Positions 12,017 through 26,821 of a stretch of 27,592 nt of DNA are shown one piece after another. Numbering within the stretch: the first letter of the stretch is position 1; each line of letters begins with the position of its first letter. The stretch is from a virus, in the IMG/VR virus record IMGVR_UViG_3300033151_000191, positions 1 through 27,592 of that record; one strand, written 5' to 3'. Below the pieces are notes generated by a model, which saw only the letters and a list, made by a program, of their open reading frames with translations, searched no databases and had not been told where the DNA came from. The position numbers and the translations under genes were made by a program.

Positions 12017-12379
12017 ATGTCAAGCTTAAAAAAAGTAAAAGCCGAACTAGAAAATTGTGCGCTCGGGAGTAACAAAGAGTTAGTAGAAAGAAACGAGACG
12101 CTTAGTCAGATGCTAGTAGTTGCTAGAGCTGAGATTGAAGAGCTTAAAAAACCTGTAAATAAACAAGTAATCAATGAGCTGCGAGTACCTTATAATGGTA
12201 TAATGCTCGATGTTGGCTTTACATTTACGCCGCTAGGTAATGGCGCGTATGATATAGACGTGACGTCTATGACTACTGAAGATGATGTAGCTGTTTTAAT
12301 TGAAGCAGAGGTTGCTGAGCTAGAAGAGGTCGTCATCTCAGCTATTATAACAGGGCATAAAAAAGGTCTTAACCCGTGA
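12017..12379 (+). CDS. Unknown 120-residue protein with N-terminal coiled coil
   Basis: A strong AAGGTGA site and ATG lie at the end of the duplicated leader. Residues 1-45 form a charged heptad-like helix (KKVKAELENC...NETLSQMLVVARAEIEELKK). Residues 50-85 look beta-rich, and the end is acidic with AELEEVVISAI. No family is recognised. The stop overlaps the GTG of the DNA polymerase gene, so it is co-expressed with the polymerase and could be an accessory factor, but nothing shows this directly. Confidence 0.65.
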   Translation: MSSLKKVKAELENCALGSNKELVERNETLSQMLVVARAEIEELKKPVNKQVINELRVPYNGIMLDVGFTFTPLGNGAYDIDVTSMTTEDDVAVLIEAEVAELEEVVISAIITGHKKGLNP

Positions 12380-14184
12380 GACAGGTATATGCTCTCGACA
12401 CGGAGACAGGCCCTTATCCTATGCCAGAAGGTGTAAAAGGCGCCTTTGCCCTAGAACCTTATCGCAAAGAGTTTTACATGAAGTTGTTCGGCTTATATGG
12501 TGCAGGTGTAAGCATAGCAGCTGATGCGATAAACCGCCGTGATAAGATAATAGAAGCTATTACAAAGCTACGAGGTGAGATAGTATACTGTCATAACACT
12601 ATCTTTGACATAGCAGTGCTTATGCGTTATTTAGGCCCTGACCACTACGAGCTACTAGCGAGTATACGCTGGCGTGATACTTCACTGCTAGCAAAATGGG
12701 TTAATAACTCACAATCGTCTGAACATTTTCGCTACTCACTTCGTAACTGCGTAGATAAATGGCTACCTGACAGCGCTGAGAAAACAGAGTTTTTAGAGCT
12801 GAAGGATAATATAGAGGACGACTATAATTACTGGCTCGAGCGCGTAGTAGCTGATTGTAAGCTAACACAAGAGCTAGCTCTTGTGTTAGAAGACTTGTTA
12901 CCGGAAACTTCGCGTCAAGGCTTTATCACTGAATGTCGCTGCTTATGGCCACTGGCTAAAGGGTGGAAGCAAGGCATACTAGTTAATCCAGATAAGGTGG
13001 ACGAGCTAGCTATTATATACCGTGTGAGGGCTAACAAGTTATTAAAAGAGATAGGATTAGACGAAGCTACTCTACGGTCACCTAAAAAGCTACGAGCTGT
13101 GCTGTTCGAAGAGTGGGGCCAGGAGCCTGTAAGCTTCACCGCTAAAGGGGAGCCTAGCACTTGCGCTGGTGATATTAAATACATAGCTCTGAACTCTAAG
13201 GATGATAGACTGCTTAAGTTATTAGAAGCTAAACAGCACTTGACAGTTATTAGTAAGTACGCTAATAGCTACGAGAAAGCTATGCTTTACCTAGGAGAGC
13301 CTAAAATACACCCTAGCCCTAAACTGTTTAATAGCTACACTGGGCGCATGACGTATAACAGTAAGTTATTTAAAAAGCACCAGGTTGGTATAGCTCTACA
13401 TCAACAACCTCGCAAAGCCAAAGAAGTAAAGCGATGTATGGAAGCACCTCAAGGATATAAGTTCATCTATATGGATTTCGCAGCGCAAGAGCTCAGAATT
13501 ATGGCTCAGATGTCCAACGATGAGGCTATGATAAACGCTTTTAATGATAATAAAGACTTGCACGCTGTAATGACTGAGAGTATTTACGCCACTCCTTATG
13601 ACGAGATTGTAGCAGGCAATAAATCAGGTGATAAACGTATAATGGATGAACGTAACTGTGGTAAATTAACTAATTTATCATCTATGTACCGTATAGGTGC
13701 TAAGGCTTTAAAAGCTAAGTTCTTTATAGGTTATGACACCATGATTACACTGCGAGAGGCTACACACTTCTTAAACTCATACAAGAAGTCGTTTAAATGT
13801 ATTCCTAAGTACTGGGAGTCTATTATACGAGCCGCTAAGCGTCAAGGCTATGTAGAGTCGCTAAGCGGTAGGCGCTTTTATCTTAAAGCCAACGATTGGC
13901 AAGGGGAGTCGTCAGCCATTAATATGCCAATACAAGGAAGTGGTGCTGACTTAAGCGAGTTATTAATAGCTTTATTAGATACTAAGTTCCCAGAACTTAT
14001 CTTCCAGGTACAAGTACACGACTCTTTAGTATGGCTTATACCTGATGAATTAAACTCATTAGAACTTAAGGAGTTCGTCGATAGTATCGATTACAATAAG
14101 TATTTCGAAGCTGATTTGAAAGTAGATTTTCCTCTGGACTTCGCGCTAGGCACTAATTTAATGGAGATGAGCCCACTAGCGTAA
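12376..14184 (+). CDS. polA-like: Family A DNA polymerase with 3'-5' exonuclease domain
   Basis: 602 residues, GTG start overlapping the previous stop (GTGA). The exonuclease part has ALDTET (Asp 8, Glu 10), CHNTIFDIAVL (Asp 78) and VVADCKLTQEL (Asp 160). The polymerase part has SYTGRMTY (320-327), motif A MDFAAQELRIMA (Asp 367), the O-helix ERNCGKLTNLSSMYRIG (Arg 426, Lys 430, Leu 434, Tyr 438) and motif C QVHDSLVW (Asp 549). No 5'-3' exonuclease domain is present, as in T7-like polymerases. Leu 434 aligns with E. coli Phe762, a position where Phe, Tyr and Leu types of viral PolA are distinguished. Ser 550 replaces the usual Glu of the HDE motif. The gene should be the phage replicase. Confidence 0.95.
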   Translation: MRQVYALDTETGPYPMPEGVKGAFALEPYRKEFYMKLFGLYGAGVSIAADAINRRDKIIEAITKLRGEIVYCHNTIFDIAVLMRYLGPDHYELLASIRWRDTSLLAKWVNNSQSSEHFRYSLRNCVDKWLPDSAEKTEFLELKDNIEDDYNYWLERVVADCKLTQELALVLEDLLPETSRQGFITECRCLWPLAKGWKQGILVNPDKVDELAIIYRVRANKLLKEIGLDEATLRSPKKLRAVLFEEWGQEPVSFTAKGEPSTCAGDIKYIALNSKDDRLLKLLEAKQHLTVISKYANSYEKAMLYLGEPKIHPSPKLFNSYTGRMTYNSKLFKKHQVGIALHQQPRKAKEVKRCMEAPQGYKFIYMDFAAQELRIMAQMSNDEAMINAFNDNKDLHAVMTESIYATPYDEIVAGNKSGDKRIMDERNCGKLTNLSSMYRIGAKALKAKFFIGYDTMITLREATHFLNSYKKSFKCIPKYWESIIRAAKRQGYVESLSGRRFYLKANDWQGESSAINMPIQGSGADLSELLIALLDTKFPELIFQVQVHDSLVWLIPDELNSLELKEFVDSIDYNKYFEADLKVDFPLDFALGTNLMEMSPLA

Positions 14185-18921: not shown

Positions 18922-19354
18922 GTTACTTTATAAGTACATAGGTCTTCACGGTAGACATACTGTGTTTACAGGCGGCTCTATAAAAGAGTCGCTGCTCTAC
19001 TGTGACACATCTATTCTATTAATGCTGTGGTGCTTAGCGGATGGAGGTGAGACTACTATACCAGAATTGTTAAAATCAGATTTTGTATATACAAAATCTG
19101 ATTTTAACCTGTTAAAAATCGCGACGCTATATAATAAGTATGACGTCCTTTATAATTGTAATGCAGTGGCTAATCTGTATAATAACTTATTAGTCAGAGG
19201 TATAACAATAAACGAAGTACTAAGCGCTAAGCATGACTTAGAGCAGTACTTTATAACTAAGTACAGTTTAAAATCACTAGAGGTGATATATGAGTTCGAC
19301 GAAAACGAGATTTGGGAAAGCTGTAGAGTTCAATCGAGAAGTGTTAGGGTTTAA
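18902..19354 (+). CDS. Unknown 150-residue protein carrying a 40-bp palindrome
   Basis: The longest frame starts at GTG 18902, overlapping the previous gene by 20 nt; no clear ribosome site is seen. The stop overlaps the next gene by 65 nt. The protein is rich in Leu, Tyr and Asn (IATLYNKYDVLYNCNAVANL) and probably helical, with no signal or membrane segment and no recognised family. Its residues 57-69 are encoded by a perfect 40-bp palindrome and so read LLKSDF...KSDFNLLK. The gene fills what would otherwise be a 370-nt gap. A regulatory non-coding region with a chance frame is the alternative. Confidence 0.5.
   Translation: MSRKIGKLLYKYIGLHGRHTVFTGGSIKESLLYCDTSILLMLWCLADGGETTIPELLKSDFVYTKSDFNLLKIATLYNKYDVLYNCNAVANLYNNLLVRGITINEVLSAKHDLEQYFITKYSLKSLEVIYEFDENEIWESCRVQSRSVRV
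19069..19108. repeat. 40-bp perfect palindrome centred on TTTGTATATACAAA (copy 4)
   Basis: Each 20-bp half is GTTAAAATCAGATTTTGTAT with no spacer. The inner 14 bp equal the palindrome found upstream of three genes. It lies within a reading frame, 180 nt before the MazG-kinase gene. Confidence 0.85.
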
Positions 19355-20138
19355 ACCGCCACAAACCGCTTCAGCCTTACTTAAACGTGATGGCCAGATA
19401 AGCGTTATGCAACTGATGGAGGAAGCTACAGAGCTAGGCGACGCTGTTATAGAAGACTCTTTAACAGACCAAGTTGACGCTTTAGTAGATTCAATTTACT
19501 TCGCTTACGGCACCTTATTTAAAATGGGTATTAGAGAGCACGTGCTAGATGAGATATTCGAAGTAGTACATAGCGCTAACATGACTAAGGCTATAGGTGT
19601 GAAAAAAGGTCGTGAGGTGGAAGGTGCAGTAGATGCTATCAAGCCTAAAGGTTGGGTTGGGCCGGAAGAACAAATTGCAAAAATTCTAGATAGACCTAAC
19701 AAGTCCATCGTTCTAGAGGGTCCTAACGGTGCCGGTAAATCAGCTCTAGCTAAACACTTAGCTTTGAAGTATAATTTACCAGTGGTGCATACCATAAAAC
19801 CTAAAAATTACCCTCAGCTTGTAGTTAGCCAACAATTGTCTTGTTGTGAAGAAGGGTGCAAAGCTATCTTTGACCGCTGTCAGGCTATATCAGGCTTAGT
19901 TTATAGTGGTGCAGGCGACCTGTTAGACGCTAAGCGCTTAGCTGATGAAGCTATAGTTATATACTGTACAGCCGACGGTGAGCGCGATGTGGACAAGCCT
20001 CACTATGACACAGAGCTAGTAGAAGCGACAAAGGACCAAAAAGCGATAAGAGCTAAGTACGAAGAAGTCATGGGTGTAATACCACATATAAAATTTAATT
20101 TTAAACAAAGTGAATATAGTAGTTTACAACTGAAGTAA
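19290..20138 (+). CDS. Fusion of MazG-like pyrophosphohydrolase and P-loop (d)NMP kinase
   Basis: 282 residues; AGAGGTGATAT stands before the ATG. The N-terminal ~130 residues match MazG-like/PRA-PH all-alpha pyrophosphohydrolases: Glu 44, Glu 45 and Glu 48 in QLMEEATELGDA, then Asp 63 and Asp 67 in QVDALVDSIYFAYG, and the later NMTK...GREVEGAVDAIKPKGW typical of phage members. From about 138 a kinase begins: SIVLEGPNGAGKSALAKHLA (P-loop 144-151), DRCQAISGLVYSG (about 195-207, like the DR..xS motif of thymidylate kinase) and YCTADGERD. The kinase half is short (about 145 residues) and lacks an obvious full lid. Probable roles are cleaving non-canonical or host (d)NTPs and phosphorylating a deoxynucleotide for phage synthesis. 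Confidence 0.82.
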   Translation: MSSTKTRFGKAVEFNREVLGFKPPQTASALLKRDGQISVMQLMEEATELGDAVIEDSLTDQVDALVDSIYFAYGTLFKMGIREHVLDEIFEVVHSANMTKAIGVKKGREVEGAVDAIKPKGWVGPEEQIAKILDRPNKSIVLEGPNGAGKSALAKHLALKYNLPVVHTIKPKNYPQLVVSQQLSCCEEGCKAIFDRCQAISGLVYSGAGDLLDAKRLADEAIVIYCTADGERDVDKPHYDTELVEATKDQKAIRAKYEEVMGVIPHIKFNFKQSEYSSLQLK

Positions 20139-20151: not shown

Positions 20152-20210
20152 AGATTTATCTTATAAGAATAAGATTTTTGATTTTAATACAACAAAAGAG
20201 AGAAATAAAA

Positions 20211-20813
20211 ATGCCAAAAGATGAAAATAAGTTCTTGTCTGTTTACGAAGAAAACAAAGACCTGTCTGAAGATGAAATTGTATTAGCTATTCATGGTGCC
20301 GCTGATGGTGACTTAACCATTAAAGAAGCTCAATCTGAATATTATGCTATTGCTGTAAGCGTCGGTGCTGTACTAACTCCAGCAGCACGTAAGGCTAAAT
20401 GGGTGGCAGAAACCGTCGAATTGGACATGAACCTAGATAGCGATATTAGTAAAGCAGAATCATGCGGTGCAGGTCTAGGTATCGGTGAGACAACTGTAAC
20501 TAAGTACATTAAAGCTCTAGCTTCTAAGCAAGGTGTTAAGTTACCAGATAGTGTATCTAAGTCGCGAGCTGATTCTATGTCAGGTCAACTAACTAGCTGG
20601 TTCAAGGACAACATCAACGCGTCTAAAGAAGATATTCTTGCTAAGGCTAAAGAGTTAGGGCTTAGCGATACGTCAGCTAAGTACTACGTTAACGTATACA
20701 AGCTGGTAGTTGAAGTGATTAAGGCTCAGACGCCTGAAGAACTTGAAGAAGAACTTGAAGAAGAACTTGAAGAAGAACTTGAAGAAGAACTTGAAGAAGA
20801 ACTTGAAGACTAG
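20211..20813 (+). CDS. Unknown 200-residue protein with highly acidic repeat tail
   Basis: I take ATG 20211 after AAGAGAGAAAT; a TTG 33 nt upstream is less likely. It has three helical units: residues ~17-50 (SEDEIVLAIHGAADGDLTIK), a middle region with IGETTVTKYIKALASKQG, and ~124-170 (MSGQLTSWFKDNINASKEDI, then LSDTSAKYYVNVYKLVVEV). The first and last units resemble the 126-residue protein at 6229, so the two are likely paralogues. The C-terminus is six copies of EELE plus D, a strong negative tail such as ssDNA-binding or DNA-mimic proteins carry. The gene has its own promoter and a strong terminator right after it, so it forms a single-gene unit and may be highly expressed. Confidence 0.72.
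   Translation: MPKDENKFLSVYEENKDLSEDEIVLAIHGAADGDLTIKEAQSEYYAIAVSVGAVLTPAARKAKWVAETVELDMNLDSDISKAESCGAGLGIGETTVTKYIKALASKQGVKLPDSVSKSRADSMSGQLTSWFKDNINASKEDILAKAKELGLSDTSAKYYVNVYKLVVEVIKAQTPEELEEELEEELEEELEEELEEELED
20736..20807 (+). repeat. 12-nt tandem repeat x 6 (GAAGAACTTGAA)
   Basis: Encodes the EELE tail. The repeat copies appear identical, so it probably expands and contracts by slippage. Confidence 0.9.
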
Positions 20814-20879: not shown

Positions 20880-21311
20880 ATGACTAATCGATTAAGTAAT
20901 GATGCTTATTTTATAGGTATAGCTAAAGCTGTGTCCGCGCGAGCTACTTGTGGCAGACGTAAAGTAGGTTGTGTTATAACAGACGAGTACCATCAAATAC
21001 TAGCCACTGGTTATAACAGCGTAGCATCTGGCTTGCCACACTGCCCAACAGAAAAAGCGTGTCCAGGAGTTAATGATAAGTCAGGCGACTCATCAAGATG
21101 TCAAGCTAGACACGCTGAAGATGTAGCGCTTATGAAGTGCAACGACATCTACCGTATAGAAACTGTGTATGTAACGACACAACCGTGCTCTTCTTGTGTC
21201 CGCCGCTTGTTAGACACTACGGCTAGAACGATTGTATTCAAAGATTCTTATCCAGACCTTGAAGCAAAAGAAATATGGGTAAAAGCCGGAAGAAATTGGA
21301 GACAGGTATGA
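20880..21311 (+). CDS. dcd-type (comEB-like): dCMP deaminase
   Basis: 143 residues; AGGAG lies 9 nt before the ATG. The zinc site is His 78-Ala-Glu 80 (CQARHAEDVAL) plus Cys 103 and Cys 106 (TTQPCSSCVR), the pattern of the cytidine/deoxycytidylate deaminase family. The insertion with Cys 55, Cys 61 and Cys 74 between strands is typical of dCMP deaminases. The reaction dCMP to dUMP supplies the substrate of thymidylate synthase. The stop overlaps the next gene's start (ATGA), so the two are co-translated. If the next enzyme uses dCMP instead, the two would compete for one pool. Confidence 0.92.
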   Translation: MTNRLSNDAYFIGIAKAVSARATCGRRKVGCVITDEYHQILATGYNSVASGLPHCPTEKACPGVNDKSGDSSRCQARHAEDVALMKCNDIYRIETVYVTTQPCSSCVRRLLDTTARTIVFKDSYPDLEAKEIWVKAGRNWRQV

Positions 21312-22099
21312 GATATTATGATTTTGAATATAGTCGGTTAGTAAAGGAAGTGCTGAGAGATGGCGTTAAGCGCAAGACTCGTAACGCTAATACTGTAGCT
21401 AAGTTTGCTACCACATTAGTGATAGACGCTCTAAAGTATGATTCCTTCCCTCTACTTACTAGCCGTAAGATGTTTATAAAAGGTATAGCCGGTGAAATGG
21501 CAGCCTTCCTTGTAGGCCCGAAGAAGCTTAGCGATTTTACAGATAAAGGGTGCAACTACTGGAAAGAGTGGGCTGACGACGACGGCTCTATAAGAGTTGA
21601 CTACGGTAATAAATGGTTAGATTTTAACGGTGTGAACCAGTTAAGAGATTTGGTAAATAAGATAAAAAATGACCCTACTGACCGTAGACTATTAGTTAGT
21701 GGTTGGGACCCATCTAGTCTGCCTAGCTTATCTCTTCCGTGTTGCCATCTGTTGTATCAGTTTTATGTTACAGACGACGGTTATGTAGATATGATATGGT
21801 ATCAACGCTCTGCTGATGTAATGATTGGCGTCCCTAGCGACGCAGTGCTAGCCGCTATATTCTTAATACTTGTAGCTAATTCTACAGGATTAAAACCAGG
21901 TGTTATTACTATGCACTTCGGTGATACCCATATATATGAAGACCATATAAAACAGGCTAATGACTTCCTAACGCTCGACCATGCTACACTCTCACCTGAT
22001 TACGTGCTAGAATCAGGTCTGTTCGATTTTGAGCCTCAAGATTTAGTAATCAGTAACTATAATCCAGGCACGAAAATAAACTTTAAACTTCACAGGTGA
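21308..22099 (+). CDS. thyA-like: Thymidylate synthase family enzyme with Asp at the dUMP-selecting Asn
   Basis: 263 residues from ATG 21308 (GGAGACAGGT upstream, ATGA overlap). The family signatures are all present: Glu 63 (GEMAAFL), NYWKEWAD (83-90), catalytic Cys 146 in LPCCHLLYQF, YQRSADVMIG (165-174) and FGDTHIYEDH (204-213). In E. coli ThyA the next segment is GLPFN, whose Asn177 binds the uracil ring. Here it is GVPSD, with Asp 178 at that place and Ser for the Phe. T4 dCMP hydroxymethylase also has Asp at the equivalent place (Asp179). The enzyme may therefore methylate or hydroxymethylate dCMP. The protein may still be an ordinary thymidylate synthase; substrate is inference. Confidence 0.9.
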   Translation: MRYYDFEYSRLVKEVLRDGVKRKTRNANTVAKFATTLVIDALKYDSFPLLTSRKMFIKGIAGEMAAFLVGPKKLSDFTDKGCNYWKEWADDDGSIRVDYGNKWLDFNGVNQLRDLVNKIKNDPTDRRLLVSGWDPSSLPSLSLPCCHLLYQFYVTDDGYVDMIWYQRSADVMIGVPSDAVLAAIFLILVANSTGLKPGVITMHFGDTHIYEDHIKQANDFLTLDHATLSPDYVLESGLFDFEPQDLVISNYNPGTKINFKLHR

Positions 22100-22102
22100 T
22101 TT

Positions 22103-23179
22103 ATGGAATTGTACAGATTAGATGCTAAAAAAGTGATGCGTATTTGGAAGATAAAAGTGATAGGTGAACGGCTTATTATAGAGTACGGCGCTATGTTTGG
22201 TAAGCTCAGCAAGGTAATAGAGCAGGTGCCTAAAGGCTTAGCAGGTCGTTCTATTAGTTGCCAAGTACGTAGTCGTATGAACTCACGCATTAATAAGCAG
22301 CTCGCAAAAGGCTACTTTATATCTACAGAAGAAGCAACTAAGAACTTTGGTAAGAACGAACTAAAGTCTTATAAGCCTATGTTAGCACAGCAGTTTAATA
22401 AACAAACAATCGTGGACACAACAGGCGCGCTTCTACAGATGAAGCTAGACGGTAACCGTATGCTTGTTACCAAACAAGATGGTGTTATAACCGCTTACAC
22501 ACGTAACGGTAAACCGGTAACTACATTAGACCATATTACAGAGCGACTAGGCTGGATTAGAGAGGGTCAGACTGTGGATGGCGAGGTGTACGTACACGGT
22601 ATGCCTTTAAAGGATATAAACTCTAGAATACGTAGAAAGCAGGAAGGTACAACAGATTTACAGTACCATATATACGACACCGTATCTGACAAGCCATTTG
22701 TAGAGCGTTTTTTGAACTTGCCTAACAGTGATGTTTTTGCTACAAGTAGCGAACCTACAAACCATACAGTACAGCTTGTTAAAACTTATGCTGTTGATAG
22801 TGAAGCTGACACAGAAGCCTTGTTTCTAAACGCAAGGCGCAAAGGTTATGAAGGTCTTATTATGAGGCTAGACGGTTATGGTTACGAGGTTGGTAAACGG
22901 TCTAAAGGGTTACTCAAAATAAAGCATAGATACGACGCAGAGTACAAAGTAATAGGCGTCGAGGTTGGGCGAGGAGGTATAGGTATCTTAGTCTTAGAAT
23001 TACCGAATGGTAAAGTTGTTAAAGGCGTCGCGCCAGGCTCTAAGCCTAGTAAGATCGCTGTAGCTACTAACCCTGACTTTTACATAGGTAAACTATGTAC
23101 TTGTTCCTTCGCTTACCTTACAGATTACGGTATTCCATTCCATTTAACATGTGACGCTTGGAGAGATTCTAATGAGTAG
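22103..23179 (+). CDS. ATP-dependent DNA ligase with N-terminal WGR-like domain
   Basis: 358 residues; AGGTGA stands before the ATG. Residues 8-72 (RIWKIKVIGERLIIEYGAMFGK...GRSISCQVRSRMNSRINKQLAKGY) look like a WGR-type or related DNA-end-binding module found at the front of some phage ligases. The ligase part has the adenylation motif QMKLDGNR (Lys 114), TVDGEVYVHG (motif III, Glu 161), YHIYDTV (IIIa), EGLIMR (IV) and LLKIKHRYDAEY (V). An OB-fold follows with GKLCTCSFAYLTDYGIPF near the end. It seals nicks in phage DNA using ATP. It overlaps the next small gene. Confidence 0.93.
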   Translation: MELYRLDAKKVMRIWKIKVIGERLIIEYGAMFGKLSKVIEQVPKGLAGRSISCQVRSRMNSRINKQLAKGYFISTEEATKNFGKNELKSYKPMLAQQFNKQTIVDTTGALLQMKLDGNRMLVTKQDGVITAYTRNGKPVTTLDHITERLGWIREGQTVDGEVYVHGMPLKDINSRIRRKQEGTTDLQYHIYDTVSDKPFVERFLNLPNSDVFATSSEPTNHTVQLVKTYAVDSEADTEALFLNARRKGYEGLIMRLDGYGYEVGKRSKGLLKIKHRYDAEYKVIGVEVGRGGIGILVLELPNGKVVKGVAPGSKPSKIAVATNPDFYIGKLCTCSFAYLTDYGIPFHLTCDAWRDSNE

Positions 23180-23384: not shown

Positions 23385-25481
23385 ATAAGTTCTACGCAAC
23401 CTATCTATTAAGCCGTCTTTAGTGTCAATTACAGCCTCAGGGTGTTGACTAGTTAATACCCCAGCCACTGGCCCAGCACTTCTAATAGAGCCAAGCGCGT
23501 GGGGCTTACCAGACCGTTGTCTACCAGAAAAGAAGTAATCACTAAGCTGCTTAGGACCAAGTTGCCCTACTAGTGGTATACTAACAGCTACGTCCCCGGC
23601 GTCAGGTATAGCAGCTACCGCTGACTCCTTCCAACCACCTGTTCTAGGCGCGAAGCGCTTAGACTCCGGAGAGGCTATATTTAGCCTCGTAACCTTTTCT
23701 AGCTTATCCAATTTAGCCATAGTAGACTTATCAAACAACTCCTTCATAACAGGCCTAGATATAGATTTGTAATTTATAACGAACTTATCTAGGTCAAACC
23801 CATCGGCTTCCTTACCAGGTACAAACAGCTTAGCTAACATCTCCTGTCTTAATGGCACTTTAGCATCTGGATTACGGTTGAGTACCTCCTGTAAACCTTT
23901 TGTATCTGAGCCTTGTAGTATAGAAGCCATAAAGTCTTGAGACGTTACACCGCCATCTTTAGAGCTGATAGCTTTACGTATAGCCGGTGACGTGATAGAA
24001 GTGCTAAAGTCTTTTTTAGCTTTATCAGCCGCCAACATTCTAGCTACAGCTGGTTTACTAGCGTTGCGATGACTAACATACTGCTTCTTAGTTATAACAT
24101 CATCAATGGTATTACGTACGTCTAAAGCGGCTGATTTAGCCACTTTAGAGTGCATAGCGTCAAACGACTCGTCGGCTATATTTAATAAGTCTCTTTCAGC
24201 CTTTATCAGTTTATTCAAGTCTCCTACTCTAGTCTTACCTGACCTACCGCCTAGTGGTACAGGCGTCTCATTTAGAGTTGAGAATATATTTTTAAATTTC
24301 TCTCTGAATTTACCAGTGACAAATGCAGAGGCGCCGCTAACCGCTAAATTCTCCCCTATTTTATCTCTTAATCCTGACATTATCATAGGGTCGGTGATAG
24401 CTATAGGGGTAGAGTCTAGCAGGTTATCTCTAACGGCTTTATCTCTAACTACTCTGGACGCTTCAATACTATCACGTAGTTTGTTAAGAGGTTGGTAACC
24501 ACCAGCGGCTTCTCCAGGCCGTGTAGGTACTGATGTACCCGTTGCCTCTTTACGTATAGCATCTATATTATAATGAATATCTTTGTTAGCTCTAGCTACT
24601 ACATCCGCTGCTCTATCAGTAGCCATTTTGAAAGTAGGTTCGTTAGTAGCTAAGCGATTCAACCTATTAATATCAGGTCGGCGCTCTGGATAAAGTCTAG
24701 CAGGTGGCGTTCTTACTGGAACATCTAGTCCCTCACTAGCGGCCTTCATGTCCTTACTACCTTGACGGCGTAACGCTAAATTAGAGCCTGCACTACCTAG
24801 CAAATCAATAGCGCCACCTAGAGCCGCACCTGTACCCGCCATAGTTAACCGTTGTTTCCACTGCTCGTCAGCTGACAGATTAGGGTCCACCATATAGCTA
24901 CCAGCGTGGGCGCCACCTGTGGTCATACCTTCTATACCAGGCATTAACATTCGACCTTCTTTATAACCCATTTGTGTGGCTAATGAGCCGAGCTCTTTGC
25001 TTGTAGCACTAGCGCCTAGCTTGCCAGCAGCCTTAGACGCTAGATTCATAGCGCCAGGACCTCCAGCCATATATGGTAATACATTCAAGCCGAAGCCAGC
25101 CACTTGGCCGCCTGTGCTATGCTCGTAGCTGTCGTACAACTCCTTCATTCTCCAGGTTTCTTTTACGTCTTCGCTATAGTCAACGCCCGGTATAAAGCTT
25201 GTTGCTAGCTGCTTAATACCTGCCCCGTGCTCTTTTAGCGTCTTGCCTGCGTGCGTAAACATTCCTCCAGGGTTAGGTATAAAAGGTGGCGAGCCAAATA
25301 TACCTACTGTAGAGGCGTAGTCAGCTTTAGGCTTGATAATAGGACCAGGCTTGACAGGGAGCCCGGCGCTTCGCTGTTGCTTTACAGCTGGAATACTCTT
25401 ACTAGCTAACTGCTCACCTTCTTGTGTCCAGCGCCCAGCGCTAGGCGCTTCTATAGTCTCGTCGTCTAATACCCAAGCCAT
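23373..25481 (-). CDS. Large ejection-type (internal virion) protein, 702 residues
   Basis: The last gene of the leftward block; its ATG overlaps the previous stop (TAATG). The first ~110 residues are Pro/Gly-rich (PGPIIKPKAD, PPFIPNPGGMF). Residues ~120-235 are Gly/Ala-rich and mildly hydrophobic (AGFGLNVLPYMAGGPGAMNL, GTGAALGGAIDLLGSAG), of the type that can insert into membranes. The remainder is long and helical with many basic residues. This make-up and its place after two similar genes resemble podovirus internal/ejection proteins that cross the cell envelope ahead of the DNA. No lysozyme or transglycosylase motif is visible. Assignment is by context and composition. Confidence 0.72.
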   Translation of the reverse strand: MAWVLDDETIEAPSAGRWTQEGEQLASKSIPAVKQQRSAGLPVKPGPIIKPKADYASTVGIFGSPPFIPNPGGMFTHAGKTLKEHGAGIKQLATSFIPGVDYSEDVKETWRMKELYDSYEHSTGGQVAGFGLNVLPYMAGGPGAMNLASKAAGKLGASATSKELGSLATQMGYKEGRMLMPGIEGMTTGGAHAGSYMVDPNLSADEQWKQRLTMAGTGAALGGAIDLLGSAGSNLALRRQGSKDMKAASEGLDVPVRTPPARLYPERRPDINRLNRLATNEPTFKMATDRAADVVARANKDIHYNIDAIRKEATGTSVPTRPGEAAGGYQPLNKLRDSIEASRVVRDKAVRDNLLDSTPIAITDPMIMSGLRDKIGENLAVSGASAFVTGKFREKFKNIFSTLNETPVPLGGRSGKTRVGDLNKLIKAERDLLNIADESFDAMHSKVAKSAALDVRNTIDDVITKKQYVSHRNASKPAVARMLAADKAKKDFSTSITSPAIRKAISSKDGGVTSQDFMASILQGSDTKGLQEVLNRNPDAKVPLRQEMLAKLFVPGKEADGFDLDKFVINYKSISRPVMKELFDKSTMAKLDKLEKVTRLNIASPESKRFAPRTGGWKESAVAAIPDAGDVAVSIPLVGQLGPKQLSDYFFSGRQRSGKPHALGSIRSAGPVAGVLTSQHPEAVIDTKDGLIDRLRRTYLSD

Positions 25482-26821
25482 TAGTTATCCCTCCATGTAC
25501 GTGTTCTCCCATCTGGGCCGACCCACTTATCCCCGTCTTTAGGATTCGTCGGAGGTTTATCGCTGATAAGTTCATTAAATAAGGCAGTGTCTAGTAGCTT
25601 ACCGCCATTTTTAGACTCGTTACCTGCAGCTACTAGACGTTCTAGTTTGTTAATCTTAGACATAGCAAGTGCTGGACTATCAGGGTTTAGACCGCCGATT
25701 GTAGGAATCAAGCCTCTAGCCCTAACTATGTCACCATCAGATAAACTACCGACTGTTCCTAAAGCTCTAACCATAGGTGACAAGGTACCTTCTGTATACG
25801 CTGTAGCTGCGGCGTAACGAGGGTCATTTTGTGCTACATTTTCCCAGTTAGATTTAGCTATAAATTTCACACGGTCTTGCCAATTAGCTCCTACACCTTT
25901 ATATAACGCGTCAGGATTGGTGAATAATATCTTCTTATACTCGTCAACAGTAGCGTTTGATATGTTCTGCGACGTTTGTGCTGTTTGCTGCCCAGCTGTA
26001 CGAAGTCTGTATTTACCACTGTCCAGTTCGGCATATGTTGATGGATGGTTACCTGACTCGTCAGAGTAACGCAGCGCATCAGTCGTTTTAAGTCGCTGCC
26101 CTGGCATATTCACATTGACAGTGGATTTACCAGCATTTTTAAGAGCTAGCTGATTAGCTGCAAAACCTGGGTCTTCCAGCCCGGCTAAGTAGTTCTGCAT
26201 AGCTGTCGTGCCTTTAGGTTCATCTTTACCGTATTGTTTAATAGCCATATCTTGCAAGCCCGGAGTATTAAACGCTTCGCGCTGTGCTTGATCTTTTATA
26301 TGCTTATCAGCCCAAGCTGATATACCCTGCTGCTTCTTCTGAGCTTGTTGCATAGACGCTAAGCGCTTATCCCACGCGTTCTGAGCGGCGGCTACATTGT
26401 TATCATTATTACGCATCGACGCTTTGTCATATAGCATACGCTCTAGTAGATTACGCTGTATGTTCTTAGGTCTAGGCTGCATAGGAGCTTGCTGCATAGG
26501 AGCTTGCTGCATAGGAGCTTGCTGCATAGGAGCTTGCTGCATAGGAGCTTGCTGCATAGGAGCTTGCTGCATAGGAGCTTGCATAGGAGCTTGCATAGGA
26601 GCTTGCTGCTTTATCTGGTTACCAAGCTGTACACCTTGAGCGAAACCTTGAGGGTCTTGTTTGGCTAGAGCTTGCGTAGCCTCTGGTGTAGACACTTGCT
26701 GCATAAATCCAGCTATACCTGTGTCAGTTCTAGTAGGTGCTTTACCCGCTAGAATCTCACTGAAGAAGTTATCATACCTTGGCTGTTGTTCTTGTAAGAA
26801 CTGATCAATCATCTCGCTCAT
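25481..26821 (-). CDS. Virion protein with Gln-Gln-Ala-Pro-Met repeats, ejection-type
   Basis: 446 residues; ATGA overlap with the upstream gene. Residues ~70-117 consist of QQAPM/QAPM repeats. After this come a basic helix (NLLERMLYDKASMR) and a long helical, Ala/Gln-rich part. The final ~150 residues include SPMVRALGTVGSLSDGDIVRARGLIP and INKLERLVAAG, a segment I associate with podovirus structural/DNA-transfer proteins. The second of three co-oriented genes with TAATG/ATGA junctions, so they are probably made in fixed ratio and assembled together. Confidence 0.72.
   Translation of the reverse strand: MSEMIDQFLQEQQPRYDNFFSEILAGKAPTRTDTGIAGFMQQVSTPEATQALAKQDPQGFAQGVQLGNQIKQQAPMQAPMQAPMQQAPMQQAPMQQAPMQQAPMQQAPMQQAPMQPRPKNIQRNLLERMLYDKASMRNNDNNVAAAQNAWDKRLASMQQAQKKQQGISAWADKHIKDQAQREAFNTPGLQDMAIKQYGKDEPKGTTAMQNYLAGLEDPGFAANQLALKNAGKSTVNVNMPGQRLKTTDALRYSDESGNHPSTYAELDSGKYRLRTAGQQTAQTSQNISNATVDEYKKILFTNPDALYKGVGANWQDRVKFIAKSNWENVAQNDPRYAAATAYTEGTLSPMVRALGTVGSLSDGDIVRARGLIPTIGGLNPDSPALAMSKINKLERLVAAGNESKNGGKLLDTALFNELISDKPPTNPKDGDKWVGPDGRTRTWRDN
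26476..26604 (-). repeat. 15-nt tandem repeat x 7 plus 12-nt x 2 (QQAPM/QAPM)
   Basis: The unit GCTGCATAGGAGCTT (plus strand) occurs seven times, then GCATAGGAGCTT twice. The 12-nt form lacks one Gln codon, so the reading frame is kept. Copy number is likely to vary. Confidence 0.92.

What the first reader, a model, noticed from the sequence alone, without database searches (positions are those of the whole stretch)
21308..22099. ThyA-family enzyme with Asp at the Asn177 position: possible dCMP (hydroxy)methylase
The uracil-reading Asn of thymidylate synthases is replaced by Asp 178 (GVPSD for GLPFN). Asp at this place is a known feature of T4 dCMP hydroxymethylase, and N177D changes in bacterial ThyA shift preference to dCMP. 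Catalytic Cys, QRS and GDTHIY motifs are intact. If correct, phage DNA may contain 5-methyl- or 5-hydroxymethylcytosine. A methylase would make dihydrofolate, fitting the reductase homologue; a hydroxymethylase would not need it.
Basis: partly seen in the sequence, partly recalled or inferred. Interest (0 to 1): 0.75.

Follow-up and report, generated by a model that had tools for sequence, protein, structure and literature searches.

The report
Phage enzyme predicted to make 5-methyl-dCMP
A phage gene that databases call thymidylate synthase carries the one residue change that makes such enzymes act on cytosine nucleotides, so the phage probably builds its DNA with 5-methylcytosine, and the same change also appears in the T4-like phages whose unknown DNA base had been a puzzle.

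Summary
Window 21308-22099 encodes a complete ThyA-family enzyme in which E. coli Asn177, the residue that reads uracil, is Asp178. This is inherited, not noise: Asp is present in all 8 named or isolated close members and in 78 of 80 metagenomic relatives, in one well-supported clade of about 40-48 kb phages.
I favour methylase over hydroxymethylase. The clade keeps Leu143, Trp80, Tyr94 and a TS-type C-terminal tail, with Trp (rarely Phe) at 83. The hydroxymethylases examined (T4, RB69, SPO1) have Asp or Glu at 143.
The gene overlaps a dCMP deaminase by 4 nt, downstream of a PRA-PH pyrophosphohydrolase/P-loop kinase fusion. This resembles phage XP-12, which replaces C by 5mC and makes dTTP by deaminating 5-methyl-dCTP.
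An independent test supports the reading. Among 22 T4-like phages, Asp177 td occurs in 10 of 10 that lack dCMP hydroxymethylase without being known canonical-C phages (Gaprivervirus, ZZ1, 133, MP1). Asn177 occurs in all 10 with hydroxymethylase and both canonical-C phages.
Substrate and product are inferred; nothing here is biochemical. A new variant of a known kind, and a testable explanation for the unknown Gaprivervirus base.

The parts
21308..22099 (+). ThyA-family enzyme with Asp178 at the Asn177 position; predicted dCMP methylase
21839..21841 (+). codon GAC for Asp178 (E. coli ThyA Asn177)
21734..21748 (+). L143 P144 C145 C146 H147: Leu (not Asp/Glu) three residues before the catalytic Cys146, and His147
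   Evidence: signature from PMC6400193
20880..21311 (+). dCMP deaminase (PF00383; HAE, PCxxC, GYN motifs), overlapping the ThyA-family gene by 4 nt (ATGA)
19290..20138 (+). PRA-PH/MazG-like nucleotide pyrophosphohydrolase fused to a P-loop kinase-like domain; candidate dCTP pyrophosphatase plus dNMP kinase (role inferred)
12376..14184 (+). family A DNA polymerase, which would have to accept 5-methyl-dCTP (context)
22103..23179 (+). ATP-dependent DNA ligase, next gene downstream (context)

Best explanation
The protein is a dCMP methylase of the thymidylate-synthase fold. Cys146 attacks C6 of dCMP, Asp178 reads and protonates the cytosine ring in place of Asn177, methylene-tetrahydrofolate supplies the carbon, and hydride transfer (not water addition) completes a 5-methyl group, giving 5-methyl-dCMP and dihydrofolate. 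The phage would convert dCTP to dCMP with the PRA-PH domain, methylate dCMP, rephosphorylate it with the fused kinase and host kinases, and build DNA with 5-methylcytosine in place of cytosine. The overlapping deaminase would turn part of the 5-methyl-dC nucleotide into thymidylate, as reported for phage XP-12. Shown here: the sequence changes, their conservation, the gene context and the correlation in T4-like phages. Inferred: substrate, product, DNA composition and the roles of the neighbours.
For: (1) Asp177 in 8/8 named and 78/80 IMG/VR clade members, with Leu143, Cys146, His147, Trp80 and Tyr94 invariant and Trp (Phe in 5/80) at 83. PMC8670742 states, citing the 1992 mutant studies, that Asn177->Asp can switch a canonical TS from dUMP to dCMP and yields 5-methyl-dCMP; the clade has that residue combination naturally. 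(2) Hydroxymethylases carry an acid at position 143 (T4 D, RB69 E, SPO1 D); the Xp12-type enzymes of 5mC phages have Asn and this clade Leu; T4 D145N makes no 5hm-dCMP (PMC6400193). (3) The deaminase overlaps the gene; in clade loci with full flanks it is present in 39/46 Asp177 loci and 0/2 Asn177 loci (Fisher p=0.03). (4) One TS-family gene per genome in 28/28 clade genomes. (5) The PF00303/PF01503/PF00383 neighbourhood and Asp177 are associated with modified-C contigs in MetaGPA (PMC8670742). (6) T4-like phages: 10/10 gp42-less phages not known to have canonical C have Asp177; 10/10 gp42+ and 2/2 canonical-C phages (RB43, RB49) have Asn177 (p=1e-4 uncorrected). (7) Predicted structure (pLDDT 94.9) is closest to TS; T4 dCMP hydroxymethylase is not among the 50 best matches listed.
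Against: No biochemistry and no base composition. His147 is retained, whereas MetaGPA found position 147 to differ in modified contigs, so this clade is not typical of that set. The deaminase is missing from 7 of 46 Asp177 loci and a PRA-PH match from about a third, so the pathway is not uniform. PRA-PH and kinase specificities are guesses. The window is a fragment. The T4-like correlation rests on two or three independent changes, not ten.
Confidence: 0.7

Rival explanations
1. It is a dCMP methylase whose main purpose is thymidylate supply by the reversed order (dCMP -> 5-methyl-dCMP -> dTMP by the overlapping deaminase), with little or no 5mC left in virion DNA.
For: Deaminase gene overlaps by 4 nt and tracks Asp177 rather than Asn177 within the clade. 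DCTD enzymes accept 5-methyl-dCMP, and XP-12 makes dTTP by this order (PMC12088426, citing Wang & Ehrlich 1982 and Kuo et al. 1982).
Against: Some Asp177 phages (VPMS1, Kolga) have no deaminase match but do have PRA-PH. Gapriviruses with Asp177 carry DenA, DenB and Alc, which would attack or block their own unmodified C-DNA (PMC8056088, PMC12115623).
Confidence: 0.13
2. It is a dCMP hydroxymethylase and the DNA contains 5hmC or a derivative.
For: Asp at 177 is shared with T4 and RB69 gp42; one relative is annotated 'pyrimidine hmase'.
Against: Leu at 143 instead of Asp/Glu, Trp80/Trp83 retained, TS-type C-terminal tail present, closest folds are TS; no PF16861 or PF09198 match in 29 clade genomes.
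Confidence: 0.07
3. It is an ordinary thymidylate synthase that tolerates Asp at 177.
For: NCBIfam TIGR03284 scores it above its thymidylate synthase cut-off (164 vs 108 bits); catalytic residues are otherwise TS-like; the deaminase would supply dUMP.
Against: Asp is kept in 86 of 88 clade enzymes, and the two that carry Asn have no nearby deaminase match, the reverse of what a dUMP-fed TS predicts; T4-like phages show the same change where gp42 is missing and C-specific nucleases are kept (PMC8056088); published Asn177->Asp mutants turn to dCMP (cited in PMC8670742).
Confidence: 0.08

Closest known systems
Xp12-type enzyme (genus Bosavirus/Pamexvirus: Xp12, AXL1, DLP4), 5mC phages
   Same: Asp177, no acid at 143, dCMP deaminase and nucleotide pyrophosphohydrolase next to it; Xp12 DNA is 5mC (PMC7653180)
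   Different: Separate branch with 98% support; Pro147 and Asn143 instead of His147 and Leu143; their cluster includes DHFR.
T4 dCMP hydroxymethylase gp42
   Same: TS fold, catalytic Cys, Asp at the Asn177 position
   Different: Acid at 143, Val instead of Trp83, Thr147, no C-terminal tail (PMC6400193); makes 5hm-dCMP
Gaprivervirus / Acinetobacter ZZ1 and 133 td enzymes
   Same: Asp177 with Leu143 and His147; single TS-family gene; dCMP deaminase in SP18
   Different: Arose within T4-like td; Asn83; frd (DHFR) adjacent in SP18 and other Gapriviruses; not named as dCMP enzymes in the papers I could read
E. coli ThyA N177D / L. casei TS N229D mutants
   Same: The same single change, with Leu143 and His147 kept; reported to methylate dCMP (cited in PMC8670742)
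   Different: Laboratory mutants, not natural enzymes

Membership tests
Thymidylate synthase (ThyA) fold family PF00303 | Profile match over the whole domain, catalytic Cys, R126/R127, QRS, H-x-Y | tested here: met
Canonical dUMP thymidylate synthase | Asn at position 177 reading uracil | tested here: not met
   Asp178 in window; 86/88 clade enzymes Asp
dCMP hydroxymethylase (T4 gp42 type) | Asp/Glu three residues before the catalytic Cys | tested here: not met
   Leu143 in window and in 80/80 IMG/VR relatives
[quoted passage not shown]
   Trp in window and 75/80 relatives, tail present and aligned
dCMP methylase (5-methyl-dCMP forming) | Asp at 177 with TS-type hydride-transfer residues | tested here: met
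dCMP methylase (5-methyl-dCMP forming) | Activity on dCMP giving 5-methyl-dCMP | not testable with these tools
   needs enzyme assay
5mC-substituted phage (XP-12 type) | Cytosine replaced by 5mC in virion DNA | not testable with these tools
   needs LC-MS of virion DNA
5mC-substituted phage (XP-12 type) | dCMP deaminase-type enzyme encoded with the methylase | tested here: met
   4-nt overlap, 20880-21311; matches in 23 of 28 other clade genomes

The most novel reading that the evidence does not exclude
A single Asn-to-Asp change has repeatedly turned phage thymidylate synthases into dCMP methylases: once at the base of this podovirus clade, separately in Gaprivervirus, in Acinetobacter phages ZZ1/133 and possibly in Morganella MP1 and a further set of contigs. 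Together with the Xp12 type, 5mC-substituted phage DNA would then be common and hidden under the label 'thymidylate synthase', and it would be the missing base of Gaprivervirus.
Probability: 0.6. Interest if true: 0.78.

Novelty: new variant of a known kind. Interest (0 to 1): 0.64.

Why it matters
If right, a large clade of phages annotated as carrying thymidylate synthase (NCBIfam still names them so) instead replaces cytosine by 5-methylcytosine, which blocks many restriction enzymes and exposes the DNA to methyl-dependent ones. The same residue rule would explain the 'currently unknown' non-canonical base of Gaprivervirus phages, which matters for their use in therapy (PMC12115623), and gives a one-residue screen for 5mC phages. 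It would also suggest that the reversed thymidylate route known from XP-12 is widespread.

Tried and rejected
A DHFR partner in the window: none at E<=1. A second, canonical TS in the same genomes: none in 28 clade genomes. The 'bifunctional dihydrofolate reductase-thymidylate synthase' annotation in MW202744: no DHFR match and only one TS match in that record, which is the Asp177 enzyme itself. A single-sequence search of IMG/VR found no relative; the alignment search found 155 and returned 80. Palindrome avoidance as a proxy for modification: only GATC is depleted and I had no control set, so it is not used as evidence. The 1992 E. coli mutant paper and the XP-12 deaminase paper are not in the library, so they are cited through later papers. 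Xp12's own record is not in the phage collection under its accession; AXL1 and DLP4 stand in for it.

Full report
Observation. The ORF at 21308-22099 (+) encodes 263 residues and is a full-length ThyA-family protein (PF00303, E=4.6e-64). Against an E. coli ThyA sequence verified on PDB 1AOB, Asp178 (codon GAC, 21839-21841) occupies the place of Asn177. Cys146, His147, QRS and GDTHIY are intact. The start codon overlaps the stop of the upstream dCMP deaminase ORF as ATGA.

Is it chance? No. The seven closest distinct relatives among deposited phage records (52 to 42% identity) all carry Asp, as do 78 of 80 IMG/VR relatives fetched with patterns that did not include this position. The clade has 99% SH-aLRT support in a 149-row tree. 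The other active-site positions are TS-like and nearly fixed: Trp80, Tyr94, Leu143, Cys146 and His147 invariant, Trp (rarely Phe) at 83.

Methylase or hydroxymethylase? Work on T4 dCMP hydroxymethylase names an acid three residues before the catalytic Cys as the signature of water addition, with Leu in TS, and reports that the T4 enzyme lacks Trp83 and the C-terminal tail (PMC6400193). In my alignments the hydroxymethylases (T4 D, RB69 E, SPO1 D) have that acid; Xp12-type enzymes (relatives of a phage with 5mC DNA) have Asn; this clade has Leu. The predicted structure (pLDDT 94.9) is closest to TS, and T4 gp42 is not among the 50 matches listed. No beta-glucosyltransferase or carbamoyltransferase was found in 29 clade genomes, while the T4 control gave the former. 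I conclude methylase, as reported for Asn177->Asp laboratory mutants (cited in PMC8670742).

Context. Each of 28 clade genomes has a single TS-family gene. A dCMP deaminase was found in 24 of 29 including the window, and a PRA-PH pyrophosphohydrolase in 20 of 29. In the window PRA-PH is fused to a P-loop kinase-like domain. DHFR is rare: two clear matches and two weak ones below the family cut-off, none in the window. MetaGPA found the same domain neighbourhood and Asp177 associated with modified cytosine, but also a change at 147 (PMC8670742), which this clade lacks. In clade loci with full flanks the deaminase is near 39 of 46 Asp177 enzymes and neither of the two Asn177 enzymes (L017, L059). 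That is the reverse of what a deaminase feeding dUMP to a TS predicts. XP-12 deaminates 5-methyl-dCTP to dTTP, and DCTD enzymes accept 5-methyl-dCMP (PMC12088426), so a deaminase acting after methylation is a reasonable reading.

Independent test. Two papers note that Gaprivervirus phages lack dCMP hydroxymethylase but keep DenA, DenB, Alc and dCTPase, and suggest an unknown base; the 2021 paper makes the same assumption for Acinetobacter ZZ1 and 133 and lists Morganella MP1 as lacking known base-synthesis enzymes (PMC8056088, PMC12115623). I first saw Asp177 in the td of Gapriviruses, then looked at ZZ1, 133 and MP1 as a test. SP18, VR7, VR20, VR25, CJ20, TH40, Yersinia P8, ZZ1, 133 and MP1 all have a single TS-family gene and Asp177 (MP1 also has Val147). 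T4, RB69 and eight other phages with gp42 have Asn177, as do RB43 and RB49, described as having canonical DNA. Fisher p=1e-4 is not corrected for descent; the tree shows two events inside T4-like td, with MP1 on a long unsure branch. I found no paper in the library naming td as the source, but the library is not complete.

Verdict. dCMP as substrate: about 0.85. Methyl rather than hydroxymethyl product, given dCMP: about 0.9. Substantial 5mC in virion DNA: about 0.65. All are predictions from sequence and context.

Noticed in passing
L091, L197-L199, L293-L295, L298-L303: td of Gaprivervirus phages and of Acinetobacter phages ZZ1 and 133 carries Asp177; these lack gp42 and were reported to have an unknown or unexplained non-canonical base.
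   Followed up: yes
L244-L276 (the LPYDIAMYG-type rows): A further well-supported Asp177 lineage among IMG/VR contigs; neighbours not examined.
   Followed up: no
L017, L059: Two clade members carry Asn177 at separate places in the tree; neither has a nearby dCMP deaminase match.
   Followed up: partly
window, whole: GATC occurs 9 times against about 61 expected; it is also the most depleted 4-base palindrome across the clade (median 0.60). GGCC, GCGC and CCGG are not strongly depleted. No control set was run.
   Followed up: partly
window 19290-20138: PRA-PH domain fused to a P-loop kinase-like domain in one ORF; in several relatives the pyrophosphohydrolase is annotated as a gene of its own.
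   Followed up: partly
L007 1-875: MW202744 gene annotated 'bifunctional dihydrofolate reductase-thymidylate synthase' has no TS or DHFR match; probable misannotation.
   Followed up: partly
window 20178-20813: ORF with a repetitive acidic C-terminus (EELEEELEEELEE...), function unknown.
   Followed up: no
window 25481-26821 (-): ORF with a run of near-identical QQAPM repeats in the N-terminal part.
   Followed up: no
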